Made by a program: the position numbers and the translations under genes
The notes under the pieces: model-generated
What the model saw: only the letters and a program-made list of their open reading frames with translations
Told to the model about the DNA's origin: nothing
Database searches by the model: none
Assembly (NCBI RefSeq): GCF_010725725.1
Contig: NZ_AP022599.1
Coordinates: 3,410,001-3,474,000, forward strand
DNA length: 64,000 bases
Direction of reading: 5' to 3'
Source: Mycolicibacterium pulveris
GTDB lineage: Bacteria > Actinomycetota > Actinomycetes > Mycobacteriales > Mycobacteriaceae
Part shown: positions 6,342-12,751 of the stretch, piece by piece
How positions within the stretch are numbered: position 1 is the stretch's first letter
How the letters are laid out: each line of letters opens with the position of its first letter

Positions 6342-7898
6342 TCAGCCGTTGGCGCCGTCTGATCCGTTGGTGCCGTTGCTGCTGCTCGCGCCGGTCCCGG
6401 TGCCACCGGTGCCACCCTTCCCGCCTGTACCGAGAGTGCCGCCGTCGCCGCCGTCGCCGCCATGCCCGCCTTCGCCACGGCCGGATGTGGTCTTGCCGTT
6501 GCCGCCGTTGCCGCCGTTGCCGCCCGAACTGCCGAAACCGCCGGCGCCGCCCTTGCCGCCCGAGCTGGCCCTGGCCAAGCCCGTGACATTCGCGGCGTCG
6601 CCGCCGTTGCCGCCGTCGCCACCGCGGCCATTGACCGCCCCGCCGTTCCCCCCGTTGCCTCCCCCGGATGCGAGGGCACTGCTCTGGCCGGTGCCGGTGG
6701 CGGTGCCGCCGTTGCCGCCGTCGCCGCCCGCGCCGACGAGCATCGCGCGGCCACCGTGGCCGCCTTCACCGCTGAACGCGGTGCCGGTGGATCCGGTGGC
6801 GGCGTCGCCGCCGTCGCCGCCGTCGCCGCCGTTGCCGGTGAGCCCGGCGCTGCCCCCGTTACCGGCATTGCCTGCGACCACGAAGCCGCCGCCGGTCGCG
6901 GCGCCGCCGTTGCCGCCGTTGCCGCCGTCGCCGGCCAGCATGCCGCCGCTGCCGCCGTGGCCGCCAGTACCGCCATCGACTCGGTCATTGGAGCTGGTAG
7001 CCGCGGCGCCCGCGGCACCGCCCCGCCCGCCGTTGCCGAGCAGTCCGGCGTTGCCGCCGTTGCCGCCGGCCTGCCTACCGTCACCGATCGATGTGCTGCC
7101 GCCGGTGCCGCCGGCCCCGCCGTCGCCCATCACGGCCCCGCCGTTGCCGCCGTGGCCACCGGCCTTTCCCTCGGCGCCGTTACCGCCGGCGCCGCCGTTA
7201 CCGAAGAGCCCGGCGTTGCCGCCGTTGCCGCCGACCTGGCCCGCCGCGCCGTCGCCGCCTTTGCCGCCGTTGCCGAACAGCAGCCCGCCGTTGCCGCCGT
7301 CTTGACCCGGCGCGCCATCGAGGCCGTTGCCGATCAGCAGCCCACCGGGACCGATCAACCCGAGGAACGCGCCGTCGGGTGTGGACAGCGCGGCCAGAAC
7401 GACCGCCGCGTCAATCGACACGTCACCGTAGGCGGTTTTGGTCGCACCCGCGGACACCGGGGATTCGGATCGGCTCAGGGTGGTCGGTTCGAACAGCATG
7501 GCGCCACGATCCTCGATCACCGAAGCGCGAGAAGGTGTTTGGGTGACGGAGCCCGCGACGAACGCGGCTGCCGGTGCCGGCCGGATCGACGCAGGGGCCG
7601 GGGTGGCCGTGGTGGGTTTCTGCGCCGGCAACCGCAGGGTGGGCGCCGTCGAGACGGCGTGGTTGAGAAGGCGCGCCGACGGCGACATCGGCACCGAGGC
7701 GGTGGCCGCCGGGACCCGGACATGCGGTGGGGCAGGCGCGTCCTGCGGCGCGGCCGCGGCCGGGGTGATGGCCAGCCCGACACCGAGGACGGTGGCCAGT
7801 GCCCCAACCCGGCCGACGAACCTCGCGCCGTGGGCCGGGTATCTCAGTTCCCACTGGTAGCTGCGCCGATTGCGCACGCGATGGTGATGCATGTTCAT
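6342..7898 (-). CDS. Secreted PGRS-like glycine-rich repeat protein without a PE domain
   Basis: It has 518 residues. An unusual leader, MNMHHHRVRNRRSYQWELRY, precedes a hydrophobic segment (about residues 28-50) ending AAAAPQDAP, a Sec-type signal. An Ala/Pro linker and a short ordered region (VSIDAAVVLAALSTPDGAFLGLIGPGG) lead from about residue 195 into GGNGG-type repeats that run to the C-terminus (GTNGSDGANG). The junction LLIGNGLDGAPGQDGG resembles PE_PGRS proteins, but no PE domain is present. AGGAGAAGAAG precedes ATG 7898. The promoter carries SARP-like boxes (7955-7983). The leader matches that of the next upstream gene. Molecular function is unknown; a surface location is likely. Confidence 0.85.
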   Translation of the reverse strand: MNMHHHRVRNRRSYQWELRYPAHGARFVGRVGALATVLGVGLAITPAAAAPQDAPAPPHVRVPAATASVPMSPSARLLNHAVSTAPTLRLPAQKPTTATPAPASIRPAPAAAFVAGSVTQTPSRASVIEDRGAMLFEPTTLSRSESPVSAGATKTAYGDVSIDAAVVLAALSTPDGAFLGLIGPGGLLIGNGLDGAPGQDGGNGGLLFGNGGKGGDGAAGQVGGNGGNAGLFGNGGAGGNGAEGKAGGHGGNGGAVMGDGGAGGTGGSTSIGDGRQAGGNGGNAGLLGNGGRGGAAGAAATSSNDRVDGGTGGHGGSGGMLAGDGGNGGNGGAATGGGFVVAGNAGNGGSAGLTGNGGDGGDGGDAATGSTGTAFSGEGGHGGRAMLVGAGGDGGNGGTATGTGQSSALASGGGNGGNGGAVNGRGGDGGNGGDAANVTGLARASSGGKGGAGGFGSSGGNGGNGGNGKTTSGRGEGGHGGDGGDGGTLGTGGKGGTGGTGTGASSSNGTNGSDGANG

Positions 7899-7954
7899 CT
7901 TCTTCTCCTGATGTCATGGCTCACGGCCCTGTCGGATCGACGATCCCGAACGGG

Positions 7955-7983
7955 CGTTGAGGATCCGTTGAGACGGAATTGAG
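7955..7983 (-). promoter_or_regulatory. SARP-type heptad direct repeats upstream of the PGRS-like gene
   Basis: On the minus strand three heptads recur at exactly 11-bp pitch: CTCAATT (7983-7977), CTCAACG (7972-7966) and CTCAACG (7961-7955). Eight or nine bases later comes GATCGT, a plausible -10, and the start codon is 57 bp below. Heptads spaced by 4 bp and placed about 8 bp from a -10 are the classical SARP box layout. The same block recurs at 8597-8625, next to the SARP gene. Confidence 0.7.
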
Positions 7984-8087
7984 CGCGGTACGAAGCGTCT
8001 TCAGGCCCTGCGCGGCGGCCCCAACGCACGGGGGTGTGACGAAATCGGCCGGACCCCGGTGGCGGGATCCGGCCGATCCAACCGCGG

Positions 8088-8531
8088 TCAGGGCAGGTTG
8101 AGGGTGCCCATCCGGGGCGGCGGCGTGGTCGGCGTCTGGGTGGCCTGGCCCGCGCCGGGCACCTGTCCCAGAGGCGATTGCGGCGCATTCGGCACTTGGG
8201 CGGCCGGACCCGTACCGGGCAGCTGCCCCAAAGGTCCTTGCGGCCACTGTTGAGCCGTCGCCGGCGGTGCGGTGCACTTTCCCCCGGTGTGTTCCCCACC
8301 CGAAGACTGGCAGCATTGAACGGTCTCCTCATACCACTCAAGGGAATCGGTTTGACCGGACTTGTTTCTTGCGTCCGCCTTCTTCAAGCAGCTGTCGTAA
8401 GTGCCGATATCCCATTCAGCCACTGCGGTCGCGGGCTGGACGAACACACCGACCGCCGACGCGATCGCGACTGCGCCGACCGCGTAGGCCCACTGGTATA
8501 TGCGCCGATTGCGCACGTGATGGTGATTCAT
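8088..8531 (-). CDS. Small secreted protein with four cysteines and a Pro/Gln-rich tail
   Basis: It has 147 residues. The leader MNHHHVRNRRIYQWAYAVGA is nearly that of the downstream PGRS-like protein, followed by a hydrophobic segment and ATAVA, then AEWDIGTYDSCLKKADARNK, QCCQSSGG and GKCTAPP (four Cys, probably two disulfides outside the cell). The tail repeats PLGQ-PG-type units. From memory, the WD-YD-C...CC-SGG...C pattern recurs in small mycobacterial secreted proteins of unknown function. ATG 8531 has AGGAGAAGAGAAC upstream. It lies between the SARP gene and the PGRS-like gene, all on the minus strand, and has its own SARP-like boxes. Confidence 0.8.
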   Translation of the reverse strand: MNHHHVRNRRIYQWAYAVGAVAIASAVGVFVQPATAVAEWDIGTYDSCLKKADARNKSGQTDSLEWYEETVQCCQSSGGEHTGGKCTAPPATAQQWPQGPLGQLPGTGPAAQVPNAPQSPLGQVPGAGQATQTPTTPPPRMGTLNLP

Positions 8532-8596
8532 GTTCTCTTCTCCTGAAGTGATGGCTCGCGCCTCTGTCCGACCCGGCATCGACGATCCCGAACGGG

Positions 8597-8625
8597 CGTT
8601 GAGGATCCGTTGAGGCGGAATTGAT
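8597..8625 (-). promoter_or_regulatory. SARP-type heptad direct repeats upstream of the small secreted gene
   Basis: The minus strand shows ATCAATT (8625-8619), CTCAACG (8614-8608) and CTCAACG (8603-8597) at 11-bp pitch, then the same TTCGGGATCGT as in the copy at 7955-7983. The block starts 9 bp below the SARP stop codon and 66 bp above the small gene. About 45 bp is almost identical between the two copies, so the promoters arose by duplication. Confidence 0.7.
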
Positions 8626-8633
8626 GCGTGCGT

Positions 8634-11600
8634 TCAGGTGCCCTGCGTGGCGGCTACCACCGCGTCGAGGAAGGCACTCGGCACGGGCGCCCACGCAGGC
8701 TGCCAATGACCGCTGCGCATGTCGTCGCGCAACGCGGTCAGTAACGCGATCACGGAGTCACCGCCGTCGAGGAGATAGCGGACCATCCCGCGCTCGGCAC
8801 ATTGTGCGGTGATCACGGTCAGCAGGTGCTTGGCCTCGTCGTGTCGGCCTGCCGCGGTCAGCGCGGCCACGAGCAGCCGATTCGCCTGCAGCAGCGCGCG
8901 CGGACGACGTTGTCCGGCAACTCGTTCCACCCAGGCTTGGGCACGGTCGCAGGCGCGGTCGGGTTGGCCCGTGAGCTGCGCACGAATTTCGGCCTCGTCA
9001 CGGATTTGTGCGGTGATCTCGCCCAGCCCGCCGTCCGGCAGCGGCTCGGCTCGCCAAGCGTCGCCCCGCCAATCCTCACCAGCAAGATTCAGGCGCACAC
9101 GCTCGTTTTCCATATGTGCGCGCAACCGGGGAAGCCTGATCGTCGCCGCGATGCGAGCGCCGTCGTCCAGGCATGCCGCGGCGCCCCGCCGGTCACCGCG
9201 CAGTGACTTGATGCGCGCACCGATCACATGGCGCGCGATGATGGTCGCGGCTTCGCCGCCTTGCGACCCCAGGACGGTGCACTCGTCGAGGAACCGTTCG
9301 GCGCCGTCGACGTCACCGCGTTCATACAACAACTCAGCCAGCAGTGCCTGAGCAAGGGCGGCGGCGTGCGACTGTCTGGCGCCGAATTGTTGTGCCACGC
9401 TTAGTGCTTCACGGCAGTGATGTTCGGCCTCGGCGACCTCGAGTTCTTCGTGAGCTGCACGGCCCGCCAGGGAATGTCCGCAGATCAGGTTGAACGGGCT
9501 GTCGTGGTAGGGGTAGGCCCACTCCTGCCGCATGCGCGCGGCCGTGAAGTCGAATCGGCAAACGTCAAGGAAGGTCGCGACGTTGGCCGCCATGCCCACC
9601 AGAACCGGCGGCATGGCGTCCGGCTTGGCCAGGCACTCCTCCAACATCTCGTCGACACCCGCGAGGTGATCCGTCCACGTCTCCACCATGGCGCGAAAGA
9701 CATTGGCTTCCAACCGCATACCGTGGCGCTCCGCCGCCGATTGTGCCCGCTTCGCCGCTGCTGACTCGAAGGCATCCAGCGCGGCATGCGCGGCAGTGCG
9801 CTGCTGCAACAACATGTGCCCGCACGCCATGGCGAGTTGAATCCTGGGGCTGAGTGACACGATGCGCGACGGCAGCTTCGACACCAAAGCACGCAACGTG
9901 GACAGTTGCGCGTGCTGAAAGAGGTCGATGCCGTGCAGCTCCAACAGCTCGATGGCGCGGTCTTCGTCGCGCGCCGCCATCGCATGGTTGATCGCCTCGT
10001 GCAGCATGTCGTGTTCGGCGAACCATCGAGACGCGGCGGCATGCAGGCCGATGATGCGGTCGGGATGGTCACGCACCAGCCGACGGCGCAGAAAATCGGC
10101 GAACAGGTGGTGGTAGCGAAACCATTCACGCTCGTCATCGAGCCGGCGCAGGAACAGATCCCGGCTCTCCACTTGCTCGAGAAGTACCTGCCCGTGATCG
10201 ACACCCGCCAGCGCCGACGCCAACTCGCCGCAGATCCGTTCGGTGACCGAGGTGGCCAACAGGAAATCGAGTGTCGCCGGGTCGAGCGAATCGAGCACGT
10301 TCTCGGCCAGGTACTGAGCTATCGCGTGATGACGACCTGACATCCGGTTGATGAGCTCGGCAGGATCGTCGCAGTCGCGCAGCGACAACGACGCCAGCTG
10401 CAGGCCCGCCGCCCACCCGTCGGTCGTTCGTTCCAGGGCCGCCACATCCGAATCGTCGAGAGCGAGCCCGTGCACGTCCACGAGGAAGGTGCGCGCCTCA
10501 TGGTTATCGAAACGCAAAGCAGCACTGTCGATCTCGACCAGCTGGTCACGCACCCGCGCTCTACTCAGCGGTAGGCCGTCCCCCGTTCGGGTCGCCACCA
10601 CGAGCTGAAGGTGGGAAGGACAATTGTCGATCAGGTAGGCCATCGCCTCGATGGTCGGAGCATCGGTGATCCGGTGCCAATCGTCGATGATCACGCAGAA
10701 GCGGTTAGCACCCCGGTCGATGTCGTTGATCAGCGTCGCCAGCACGAAGCGCGTCGCCGCAGCGCCATGCTCTTCGAGTGTTGCGCGCAGTTCGGCGCCG
10801 ACATCTGGCTTTACCGTGCGGACCGCGTCGATCAGGTGTGCGAGAAACCAGACGACGTCGTTGTCGTCGTCGTCGGTGGTCAGCCAGGCGACGGTGACGC
10901 CGTCGGCCACGAGCACCTCGCGCCACTGCGCGGCGAGCGTCGTCTTCCCGAATCCCGCAGGCCCGCGGATCACCGTCAGCCTCCGGCCGCCGCCCCCGCG
11001 CAATGTGTCGGTCAGCCGAGCGCGCTCGACCAGCCGGCGAGGCGATGCCGGGGGCCGGTACTTGGTCGTCGCGGCAGGCGGTGCGGTGACAGGTCGCGGT
11101 GCGGGCGCGGGAAGAAGCAACGACTGGTCGTGGCGCAGGATGGCGGTTTCGAGGTCGCGCAGCGCGGGGCCGGGGTCGACGCCGAGCTCGTCGATCAGCC
11201 GAGCGCGCACCGATGCACTCACCCGTAGTGCGTCGGCTTGTCGGCCCGACCGGTAGAGCGCGAGCATGAGCCGGCAGTGCAGCTGTTCCCGGTACGGATT
11301 GGCGACCACCAGGCGTTCGAGATCGGCGACCACAGCGTGATGCCTGCCCAGCGCGAGTTCGGCGTCGACGCGTTGTTCGAGTGCGACCAGGCGAAGTTCC
11401 TCGAGGCGGGCCGCTTCGGTCTTGACGAATTCCGCTTCGGCCAGGTCGTCGAGCACCGGTCCGCGCCACAACTCCAACGCATCGGTGAGCAGCGTTTGGG
11501 CGCGCTCGGTTTCACCTCGCTCCAACGCCTCTCGGCCGGCTCCGAGCAGGTGCTCGAAACGCGCCGCGTCGACGTGGTCGGGATCGACGAACAAACCGTA

Positions 11601-11903
11601 GCCCGCCGACCGGGTGACCAGCACATCCTGCGCCCCGACGCTCGCCAGTCGCGAACGCAGGTGTGAGACATGGGTGCGCAGGGTGACATCGGCACTTGCC
11701 GGTGGTTCGCCGTGCCATATCGCGTCCGCGATCCGGCCGGCCGGAACGAGTGCGTTCAGGTGAAGCAGCAGCACGGCCAGCAGTTCGCGCTGCTTCCTGC
11801 TGCCGATGTCGAGCAGCCGTCCACCGTCGACGCCCGCGGTGAGGGGACCGAGGATGCCGAAGAAGGGCTGCCCGGCTACGGCGTCGGCGCGCCGCGGTTT
11901 CAC
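8634..11903 (-). CDS. SARP-BTAD-STAND ATPase regulator (SARP-LAL type)
   Basis: A large transcriptional activator of about 1090 residues. The N-terminal SARP winged helix begins FGILGPLTAG with TLRTHVSHLRSRL; the bacterial transcriptional activation domain covers about residues 100-245 (YREQLHCRLMLALYRSGRQADALR). Then comes an AAA/STAND ATPase with Walker A GPAGFGKTTLAAQW near residue 312 and Walker B-like CVIIDDWHRI. A long MalT-like helical repeat region ends the protein. No C-terminal LuxR HTH is present, so DNA binding rests on the N-terminus, as in PimR-like hybrids. GTG 11903 is chosen because it starts just before the conserved domain; the frame is open to an ATG at 12059. Heptad boxes in the two downstream promoters suggest its targets. 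Confidence 0.88.
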   Translation of the reverse strand: MKPRRADAVAGQPFFGILGPLTAGVDGGRLLDIGSRKQRELLAVLLLHLNALVPAGRIADAIWHGEPPASADVTLRTHVSHLRSRLASVGAQDVLVTRSAGYGLFVDPDHVDAARFEHLLGAGREALERGETERAQTLLTDALELWRGPVLDDLAEAEFVKTEAARLEELRLVALEQRVDAELALGRHHAVVADLERLVVANPYREQLHCRLMLALYRSGRQADALRVSASVRARLIDELGVDPGPALRDLETAILRHDQSLLLPAPAPRPVTAPPAATTKYRPPASPRRLVERARLTDTLRGGGGRRLTVIRGPAGFGKTTLAAQWREVLVADGVTVAWLTTDDDDNDVVWFLAHLIDAVRTVKPDVGAELRATLEEHGAAATRFVLATLINDIDRGANRFCVIIDDWHRITDAPTIEAMAYLIDNCPSHLQLVVATRTGDGLPLSRARVRDQLVEIDSAALRFDNHEARTFLVDVHGLALDDSDVAALERTTDGWAAGLQLASLSLRDCDDPAELINRMSGRHHAIAQYLAENVLDSLDPATLDFLLATSVTERICGELASALAGVDHGQVLLEQVESRDLFLRRLDDEREWFRYHHLFADFLRRRLVRDHPDRIIGLHAAASRWFAEHDMLHEAINHAMAARDEDRAIELLELHGIDLFQHAQLSTLRALVSKLPSRIVSLSPRIQLAMACGHMLLQQRTAAHAALDAFESAAAKRAQSAAERHGMRLEANVFRAMVETWTDHLAGVDEMLEECLAKPDAMPPVLVGMAANVATFLDVCRFDFTAARMRQEWAYPYHDSPFNLICGHSLAGRAAHEELEVAEAEHHCREALSVAQQFGARQSHAAALAQALLAELLYERGDVDGAERFLDECTVLGSQGGEAATIIARHVIGARIKSLRGDRRGAAACLDDGARIAATIRLPRLRAHMENERVRLNLAGEDWRGDAWRAEPLPDGGLGEITAQIRDEAEIRAQLTGQPDRACDRAQAWVERVAGQRRPRALLQANRLLVAALTAAGRHDEAKHLLTVITAQCAERGMVRYLLDGGDSVIALLTALRDDMRSGHWQPAWAPVPSAFLDAVVAATQGT

Positions 11904-12226
11904 CAGGTCAGCGTATCCGCGACCGGGGCTCGGCGGGACACATTGAGCCGCGAGTCCTGACCCGATGTGATTGTGAATTCGAAACTTTCGGTTTAGCGCC
12001 TGGTCATCGCGACAGTGATTTAACCCACGCCCGCGACAGGTCCGGAGTTGATAACGCATCGGAGTTCGGGTTCGACGTACCGACTGGGGGTCAAGGTATT
12101 GCGTTGTCGTCTAGACCGCAGGCGGCGAGATCGCCGGACATAGGGCGGTTAAGCAATTTCCTAAACCGAACATCACCGCGACGCCAACCGATTGGTGTCG
12201 CAGTGACGCAAGGCGAAGGAGTGGAA
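11904..12226. other. Divergent intergenic region, no gene seen
   Basis: This stretch separates the leftward SARP gene from the rightward VPxV-repeat gene and should hold both promoters. The SARP frame stays open to 12059 but that part has no domain character. GGAGTT occurs twice (near 12042 and 12060), but the spacing does not match the 11-bp SARP pattern, and no heptad boxes like those at 7955 or 8597 were found. Confidence 0.5.
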
Positions 12227-12751
12227 ATGAACTTCAAGAAATTCGCGGTAACCACCACGATGGCCGGTGCGCTGGGCCTCGGCGGGCTCGGCCTGGGCAC
12301 TGCTGTGGCACAGGCCGATCCGTTCGTGCCGCCGCCGCCTCCGGTGCCGGTGCCCGGCGTCCACGTTCCGGACGTCCATGTGCCGGGTGTGCATGTTCCT
12401 GATGTGAACCTGCCGGCTGTGAACGTTCCGGATGTGAACGTGCCGAGCGTGAACGTTCCGGATGTGAACGTGCCCAGCGTGAACGTTCCGGATGTGAACG
12501 TGCCCAGCGTGAACATCCCGGATCTCGAGTTTCCCGAGGTGATCAGCCACTTCCGGCTGGCACCAGGAGACATCGCGCCCGGGCAGTTGAAGAACTCGCC
12601 GTTCATCAACGGGGTCCCGAACCCGTTCTTCGGAATCCCGCCTGGTCAGCTGAAGAAGCTGCCGACGGTGGACGGCATCGTCAACCCGTTCTTCGAGCAG
12701 GCGCCGGGCCACTGGGAGATCCCGGACGGCCCGTTCCCGCCAGAGTCCTGA
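12227..12751 (+). CDS. Secreted VPxV pentapeptide-repeat protein
   Basis: It has 174 residues. The signal peptide is MNFKKFAVTTTMAGALGLGG...AVAQA, with likely cleavage before DPFVPPPPP. Residues about 43-105 are a near-perfect five-residue repeat (VPDVN/VPSVN/VPGVH), encoded by 15-bp direct repeats. The C-terminal half repeats APGQLKNSPFINGVPNPFF and PPGQLKKLPTVDGIVNPFF (two units of about 24). The start is ATG 12227 with GAAGGAG upstream. Function is unknown; the repeat suggests an extended, valine-rich extracytoplasmic stalk. A strong hairpin follows the stop. Confidence 0.85.
   Translation: MNFKKFAVTTTMAGALGLGGLGLGTAVAQADPFVPPPPPVPVPGVHVPDVHVPGVHVPDVNLPAVNVPDVNVPSVNVPDVNVPSVNVPDVNVPSVNIPDLEFPEVISHFRLAPGDIAPGQLKNSPFINGVPNPFFGIPPGQLKKLPTVDGIVNPFFEQAPGHWEIPDGPFPPES
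12354..12520. repeat. 15-bp coding tandem repeats (VPxVx units)
   Basis: Units related to gtgaacgttccggat recur in frame across the repeat part of the secreted protein. The central 30-bp double unit (gtgaacgttccggat then gtgaacgtgccgagc or cagc) is nearly identical three times, so copy number may vary between strains. Confidence 0.85.

What the first reader, a model, noticed from the sequence alone, without database searches (positions are those of the whole stretch)
7955..8625. SARP-type boxes at 11-bp pitch in two promoters next to a SARP-LAL gene
Two minus-strand promoters (7955-7983 and 8597-8625) each carry three heptads, CTCAATT/ATCAATT, CTCAACG and CTCAACG, at exact 11-bp spacing, ending 8-9 bp from a GATCGT hexamer. 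This is the known SARP box layout. The large SARP-ATPase regulator at 8634-11903 ends 9 bp from the first box. Regulator, boxes and two secreted proteins thus look like a self-contained regulon, unusual for PGRS-like proteins, whose control is mostly unknown.
Basis: partly seen in the sequence, partly recalled or inferred. Interest (0 to 1): 0.75.

Follow-up and report, generated by a model that had tools for sequence, protein, structure and literature searches.

The report
Regulator with matching operators, two targets
A mycobacterium close to M. elephantis carries a large sensor-type gene regulator whose predicted binding sites, three short repeats one helix turn apart, sit in front of two neighbouring genes for apparently exported proteins, and distant relatives keep the same arrangement, so this is probably a small private control circuit of a known kind.

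Summary
Observation confirmed. The two triplets (7955-7983, 8597-8625, minus strand) have exact 11-bp pitch and are the only matches (<=3 mismatches) in the 5.48-Mb genome; reversed control 0. They are not independent: the PGRS promoter looks like a copy of the small-gene promoter, through about codon 14. The independent evidence lies outside the window. Five diverged intact SARP-LAL relatives (58-63% identity) each carry three CAAC-core repeats at 11-bp pitch just after the SARP stop, then GANNGT and a gene for the same small Cys-rich, apparently secreted protein. A relaxed pattern hits 6 sites in 377 genus genomes (control 0); 6 of 6 precede that gene, one of them not used to make the pattern, though the pattern misses 4 of 10 known operators. 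Best reading: a PimR/AfsR-type SARP-STAND activator with an adjacent private regulon; the small protein is the ancestral target and a PE-less PGRS gene was recruited in the elephantis lineage by capture of promoter and N-terminus. Binding, inducer and protein functions are untested. New member of a known kind, with unusual targets.

The parts
8634..11903 (-). SARP-LAL (large SARP) regulator, 1089 aa: winged HTH (Trans_reg_C), BTAD, STAND ATPase (AAA_16), MalT-like TPR; no LuxR/GerE HTH found
   Evidence: Pfam; NCBIfam (partial matches below cut-off to MalT and AfsR); nearest solved chains EmbR 2fez and AfsR 8hvr
11901..11915 (-). Predicted leaderless start of the SARP gene: TACGCT (11910-11915), 6 nt, GTG start (11901-11903)
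   Evidence: TACGCT-GACCTG-GTG is identical in the 7 intact loci compared; that this means leaderless is inference
8597..8625 (-). Operator of the small-protein gene: three heptads at 11-bp pitch
   Evidence: kept in relatives
8582..8587 (-). GATCGT hexamer, putative weak -10 (GANNGT in the 10 operators listed)
   Evidence: alignment A3
8088..8531 (-). Small Cys-rich protein, 147 aa, signal-peptide-like N-terminus (by eye), 4 conserved Cys, Pro-rich tail; the conserved target
   Evidence: relatives unannotated; confident predicted core about residues 41-90
7955..7983 (-). Operator of the PGRS-like gene: three heptads at 11-bp pitch, apparent copy of the small-gene operator
7940..7945 (-). GATCGT hexamer, putative weak -10
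6342..7898 (-). PGRS-repeat protein, 518 aa, no PE domain found; signal-peptide-like segment about residues 27-50 (by eye)
   Evidence: Pfam PF21526 only; first 189 residues have matches in 3 of 198 genomes at E<=1e-6
7850..8019 (-). Apparent copied segment (limits approximate): short SARP-tail-like stretch, operator, 5' UTR and first about 16 codons of the PGRS gene, matching about 8490-8654
   Evidence: alignment A1 and windowed identity

Best explanation
The gene at 8634-11903 encodes a SARP-STAND (SARP-LAL) transcriptional activator of the PimR/AfsR kind. Its N-terminal winged-HTH/BTAD domain binds side by side to three CTCAACG-type heptads, one per helix turn, and recruits RNA polymerase to promoters with a poor -10 (GANNGT); activity is gated by the ATPase/TPR half in response to an unknown inducer. 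The regulator gene probably has a leaderless promoter without a shared box. The predicted regulon in this genome is two genes: the small 4-Cys secreted-type protein next to it (ancestral, conserved target) and a PGRS-repeat protein brought under control when a segment reaching from about the SARP stop codon to about codon 14 of the small gene was copied in front of a PGRS gene. Shown by sequence: boxes, pitch, conservation, rarity, similarity of the two promoter segments, domain layout. Inferred: binding, activation, gating, direction of the copy, export.
For: Only 2 sites in the whole genome at <=3 mismatches. Five diverged intact SARP-LAL loci (G068:C25, G013, G104, G213, G300) carry the triplet right after the SARP stop, followed by the small-protein gene. 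In six operators 15 of 33 columns are invariant, 12 of them at phases 2-6 of the 11-bp unit; GA..GT is invariant downstream. A test without any consensus puts spacing 11 above spacings 8-10 and 12-15 in 8 of 8 intergenic regions, P 0 to 0.0155 from 2000 shuffles each (two pairs of regions are near-copies). Relaxed pattern: 6 sites in 377 genomes, reversed control 0, 6 of 6 upstream of the small gene; G102 was not used to make the pattern. The stretch TLRxHVSxLR (taken as the DNA-reading helix, recalled) is shared by the 6 SARPs aligned and differs in G037's other SARP. A sigma-70 scan of 7800-8700 finds no promoter-like pair, as expected if an activator is needed. Layout matches PimR (three heptamers, 4-bp spacers, adjacent target; PMC5930380, passages) and AfsR (11-bp repeats, 3' repeat 8 bp from a poor -10; PMC10936776, passages).
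Against: No binding or expression data. The two window boxes are probably a duplication, and the diverged operators come from related loci, so part of the conservation could be descent. Scored against the window's own heptad CTCAACG, the relatives' operators do not stand out: 15-16 of 21, and in L034 and L036 a coding site scores 16, above the operator's 15. Heptad 1 is degenerate in the elephantis lineage (CAATT, CAGTT). A site scoring 13 of 15 on the core, as high as several operators, lies upstream of the SARP in L036, on the other strand. GANNGT fits the actinobacterial -10 (TANNNT, recalled) only at positions 2 and 6. G102 keeps the operator although only residues 736-1023 of its SARP are found beside it. 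G037 has a similar gene trio with another large SARP but no significant 11-bp repeat (0.24 for pairs and 0.23 for triplets, 500 shuffles).
Confidence: 0.8

Rival explanations
1. The boxes are bound by this SARP-LAL but it represses, or only modulates, promoters driven by something else.
For: Sequence shows a site, not its sign; the operator survives in G102 beside a SARP remnant without a recognisable DNA-binding part.
Against: No sigma-70-like hexamer pair in 7800-8700 and only a weak -10 beside the repeats, as described for activator-dependent SARP promoters; PimR and AfsR are described as activators in the passages read, while an EmbR passage speaks of context-dependent modulation.
Confidence: 0.09
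2. The boxes are the site of another BTAD-type regulator of the genome and the neighbour is incidental.
For: Regulators of this kind are common: 251 of 396 genus genomes have a match at E<=1e-40 to the N-terminal part.
Against: The relaxed pattern occurs in 6 of 377 genomes, and the 6 sites lie beside a SARP-LAL (5) or its remnant (G102).
Confidence: 0.06
3. The repeats are conserved only by descent or as part of an RNA element, not as a protein operator.
For: The segment seems to have been duplicated as a block; a CCCGTTCGGG palindrome follows heptad 3 in the elephantis lineage.
Against: Invariant columns concentrate on the CAAC cores at 11-bp phase; the palindrome is not kept in the diverged relatives; in the assumed promoter layout the repeats lie upstream of the transcript.
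Confidence: 0.05

Closest known systems
PimR (SARP-LAL, Streptomyces natalensis) and its pimM operator
   Same: N-terminal SARP plus LAL-type ATPase half without LuxR HTH; three heptameric direct repeats with 4-bp spacers; one adjacent target (PMC5930380, passages)
   Different: Heptamer is CGGCAAG there, CTCAACG or TGCAACG-like here; PimR controls a regulator of an antifungal cluster, here the targets encode apparently secreted proteins; PimR has a second operator
AfsR (large SARP with NOD and TPR) and the afs box
   Same: 11-bp direct repeats near a poor -10; SARP-NOD-TPR order (PMC10936776, passages); residues 10-262 match solved AfsR (8hvr, E 3e-45)
   Different: Two repeats in the afs box, three here; the C-terminal half here has partial NCBIfam similarity to MalT; AfsR acts on several promoters
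EmbR (mycobacterial SARP, 2fez)
   Same: Same winged-HTH/BTAD N-terminus (residues 14-259, E 4e-47)
   Different: Solved chain has 388 residues, too short for a STAND/TPR half; the terms 'motif', 'consensus' and 'repeat' do not occur in the EmbR paper's main text (PMC9239209, term search and passages)
PE_PGRS proteins
   Same: PGRS repeats (PF21526)
   Different: No PE domain found; instead a signal-peptide-like N-terminus (by eye) preceded by a segment shared with the small gene

Membership tests
SARP family | N-terminal winged HTH plus BTAD | tested here: met
   PF00486 E 1.1e-8, PF03704 E 2.9e-47
SARP family | Target promoters with direct repeats at 11-bp pitch about 8 bp from the -10 | tested here: met
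   Pitch 11 exact; gap to the putative -10 is 9 with the heptad boundary used; conserved in relatives. That GANNGT is the -10 is not shown
SARP family | Binds the repeats and activates transcription | not testable with these tools
   Needs gel shift and in vitro transcription
SARP-LAL (PimR type) | LAL/STAND ATPase half with no LuxR HTH at the C-terminus | tested here: met
   AAA_16 and TPR_MalT above cut-off, no GerE at E<=0.001
SARP-LAL (PimR type) | Operator of three heptamers with 4-bp spacers next to an adjacent target | tested here: met
SARP-LAL (PimR type) | Heptamer consensus CGGCAAG | tested here: not met
   Here CTCAACG or TGCAACG-like; I treat the consensus as a property of PimR and its close relatives, not of the architecture
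PE_PGRS | PE domain at the N-terminus | tested here: not met
   Pfam finds PGRS only
PE_PGRS | PGRS repeats | tested here: met
   PF21526 38.1 bits, cut-off 27

The most novel reading that the evidence does not exclude
PE-less PGRS proteins and the small 4-Cys protein family form a recurring surface-protein module run by interchangeable STAND-type regulators (SARP-LAL in the window, a SARP-NB-ARC protein in G037, LuxR-type regulators in L121 and L093), and capture of operator plus N-terminus is a way such genes are recruited into the regulon.
Probability: 0.3. Interest if true: 0.65.

Novelty: new member of a known kind. Interest (0 to 1): 0.5.

Why it matters
If right, it gives a PGRS-repeat protein a named regulator, a defined operator and a promoter layout, and carries the PimR/AfsR promoter logic, which the passages read here describe for antibiotic control, to apparently exported proteins of a mycobacterium. 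It is small enough to test with one gel shift and one deletion mutant. The copied promoter also suggests how a gene can join a regulon in one step.

Tried and rejected
Boxes in the SARP's own promoter: best core scores 11, 11, 11 and 13 of 15 in four of 7 intact loci and none at 11 or more in three, not shared in place or orientation; the 13 in L036 equals real operators, so autoregulation is not excluded there. Further targets in the own genome: the looser core gave 7 sites against 4 in the reversed control; the five others were not followed up. 11-bp repeats at the G037 trio: not significant. Small-protein, PGRS N-terminus or SARP N-terminus within the fetched flanks (up to 1.5 kb) of 26 LAL-type relatives L008-L033: none at E<=1e-3. 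Regulators beside small-protein loci L078-L107 (30 loci, flanks up to 1.5 kb): 20 of 30 show no hit at E<=1e-4 to three regulator queries; one of the 20, L093, has a LuxR-type regulator by Pfam, so this test is not sensitive. Small-protein fold: confident for about residues 41-90 only; no PDB fold match at E<=0.001, no PDB sequence match at E<=0.1.

Papers: searches. 'SARP-LAL' with 'mycobacteri' gave 2 papers, 'PGRS' with 'SARP' and three other terms 1, a PE-less PGRS query 1; all these seen as listings only. Passages only were seen of PMC5930380, PMC10936776, PMC9239209 and PMC9045387. I make no claim that nothing is in print.

The pattern was made by me from operators already seen. Of the 10 operators listed it matches 6: it misses the window's PGRS operator, both operators of the M. 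elephantis copy and G104. 19 of the 396 genus genomes (G377-G395) were not searched with it.

Full report
What was checked. The window lies at G000:C1:3410001-3474000 of a 5.48-Mb genome; a 96%-identical regulator is in M. elephantis DSM 44368. Both triplets are where the finding puts them, with exact 11-bp pitch and a GATCGT hexamer 9 bp after heptad 3. With up to 3 mismatches they are the only two matches in the genome, and the reversed pattern has none.

The two boxes are probably one event. The aligned promoters match over operator, parts of the 5' UTR and about the first 16 (PGRS) or 14 (small gene) codons; then identity falls to 7-11 of 20 per window. A short stretch resembling the last SARP codons lies upstream of the PGRS operator (16 of 20 and 13 of 20 identities in two overlapping windows), which hints that the copy came from the SARP/small-gene side. 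Beyond this N-terminus the PGRS protein aligns from residue 25 on with three other PGRS-type proteins at 33-39% identity.

Independent evidence. The SARP N-terminal part finds 7 of 396 genus genomes (8 loci) at 60% identity or more (list ordered by E-value) and none of 24 genomes from other families of the order at E<=1e-70. Of the 8 loci, 7 are intact and one (G220) is a remnant fused to the small gene. The five diverged intact loci are 58-63% identical over the aligned length. Each has, directly after the SARP stop, three CAAC-core repeats at 11-bp pitch, the GANNGT hexamer and a gene for a small protein 41-48% identical to the window's. In six operators 15 of 33 columns are invariant, 12 of them at phases 2-6 of the unit. 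With no consensus supplied, spacing 11 is the best of spacings 8-15 in 8 of 8 regions; P from 2000 shuffles each is 0, 0.0085, 0.0065, 0.0155, 0.0005, 0.0005, 0.0015 and 0.0005. The window and M. elephantis regions are near-copies, and so are the G300 and G102 regions. Against this, when scored with the window's own heptad CTCAACG the operators of L034, L035 and L036 reach only 15-16 of 21, and in L034 and L036 a coding site shared by both scores 16; the match lies in the CAAC core and the pitch, not in the whole heptad.

Specificity across genomes. The relaxed pattern hits 5 sites in 297 genomes and 1 in 80 more; the reversed control hits 0 in both. 6 of 6 sites precede a small-protein gene. 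G102 was not among the sequences used to make the pattern; its operator is identical to that of G300 over the compared block, so it is a weak though real prediction. The pattern misses 4 of the 10 operators listed, so it measures specificity, not sensitivity. In G102 only SARP residues 736-1023 are found beside the operator; in G180 residues 4-50 and in G220 about 2-245 remain.

How it should work. The domain layout, the nearest solved relatives EmbR and AfsR, and the passages read on PimR and AfsR point to cooperative binding of SARP domains to the heptads and recruitment of polymerase at a poor promoter, gated by the ATPase and TPR half. A sigma-70 scan finds no promoter-like pair in 7800-8700. 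The SARP gene starts at a GTG placed 6 nt after TACGCT in 7 of 7 intact loci compared (in four of them this GTG opens a short leader frame instead), which fits a leaderless transcript (the rule is recalled).

Targets. The small protein has 32 relatives at E<=1e-6 among the candidates scored, those with a name 'hypothetical' or 'uncharacterised', none with a Pfam domain. Of its Cys, three are invariant and one nearly so in 20 sequences. The model is confident for about residues 41-90 (two helices and a hairpin) and has no fold match at E<=0.001. The second target has PGRS repeats and no PE domain. Signal peptides were judged by eye.

Wider pattern. G037 carries a PGRS-type gene (24.7 bits, below Pfam's cut-off of 27), a small-protein relative and a large SARP with an NB-ARC domain side by side, without a significant 11-bp repeat. 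The own genome has a second PGRS-type gene whose start overlaps the upstream end of a LuxR-LAL open frame on the other strand, and G079 has two small-protein genes after a LuxR-type regulator. Against a general rule, none of 26 LAL-type relatives has a small-protein or PGRS gene in the fetched flanks, and 20 of 30 small-protein loci show no hit to three regulator queries.

Verdict. The finding is real and its core interpretation holds up. It is a new member of a known kind, with the PGRS gene as a late recruit. Binding and activation remain to be shown.

Noticed in passing
window 11901-11915 and L034, L035, L036, L070: The SARP start looks leaderless (TACGCT-GACCTG-GTG). In these four relatives the same GTG opens an 8-codon frame whose TGA overlaps the likely SARP start (ATGA or GTGA); read by eye.
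   Followed up: partly
L120 7180-12381: PGRS-type gene, small Cys-protein relative and a large SARP with NB-ARC domain side by side in G037.
   Followed up: partly
L121 4864-9048: Second PGRS-type gene of the own genome, its start overlapping the upstream end of a LuxR-LAL open frame on the other strand.
   Followed up: partly
L008, L013, L015, L023: Relatives of the ATPase/TPR half (48-51% identical) carry Ser/Thr protein kinase domains in L008, L013 and L015; L023 (42%) has a LuxR HTH instead. The sensor half seems interchangeable.
   Followed up: partly
L108, L122, L068: Decayed SARP loci: only residues 736-1023 in G102, fragments beside or fused to the small gene in G180 and G220.
   Followed up: partly
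window 12227-12751: Protein with VPDVNVP-like repeats and a signal-peptide-like start, divergent from the SARP gene; no Pfam or NCBIfam match at E<=0.001.
   Followed up: no
window 7945-7954 and 8587-8596: CCCGTTCGGG palindrome between heptad 3 and the hexamer in the elephantis lineage, not kept in the diverged relatives (by eye).
   Followed up: no
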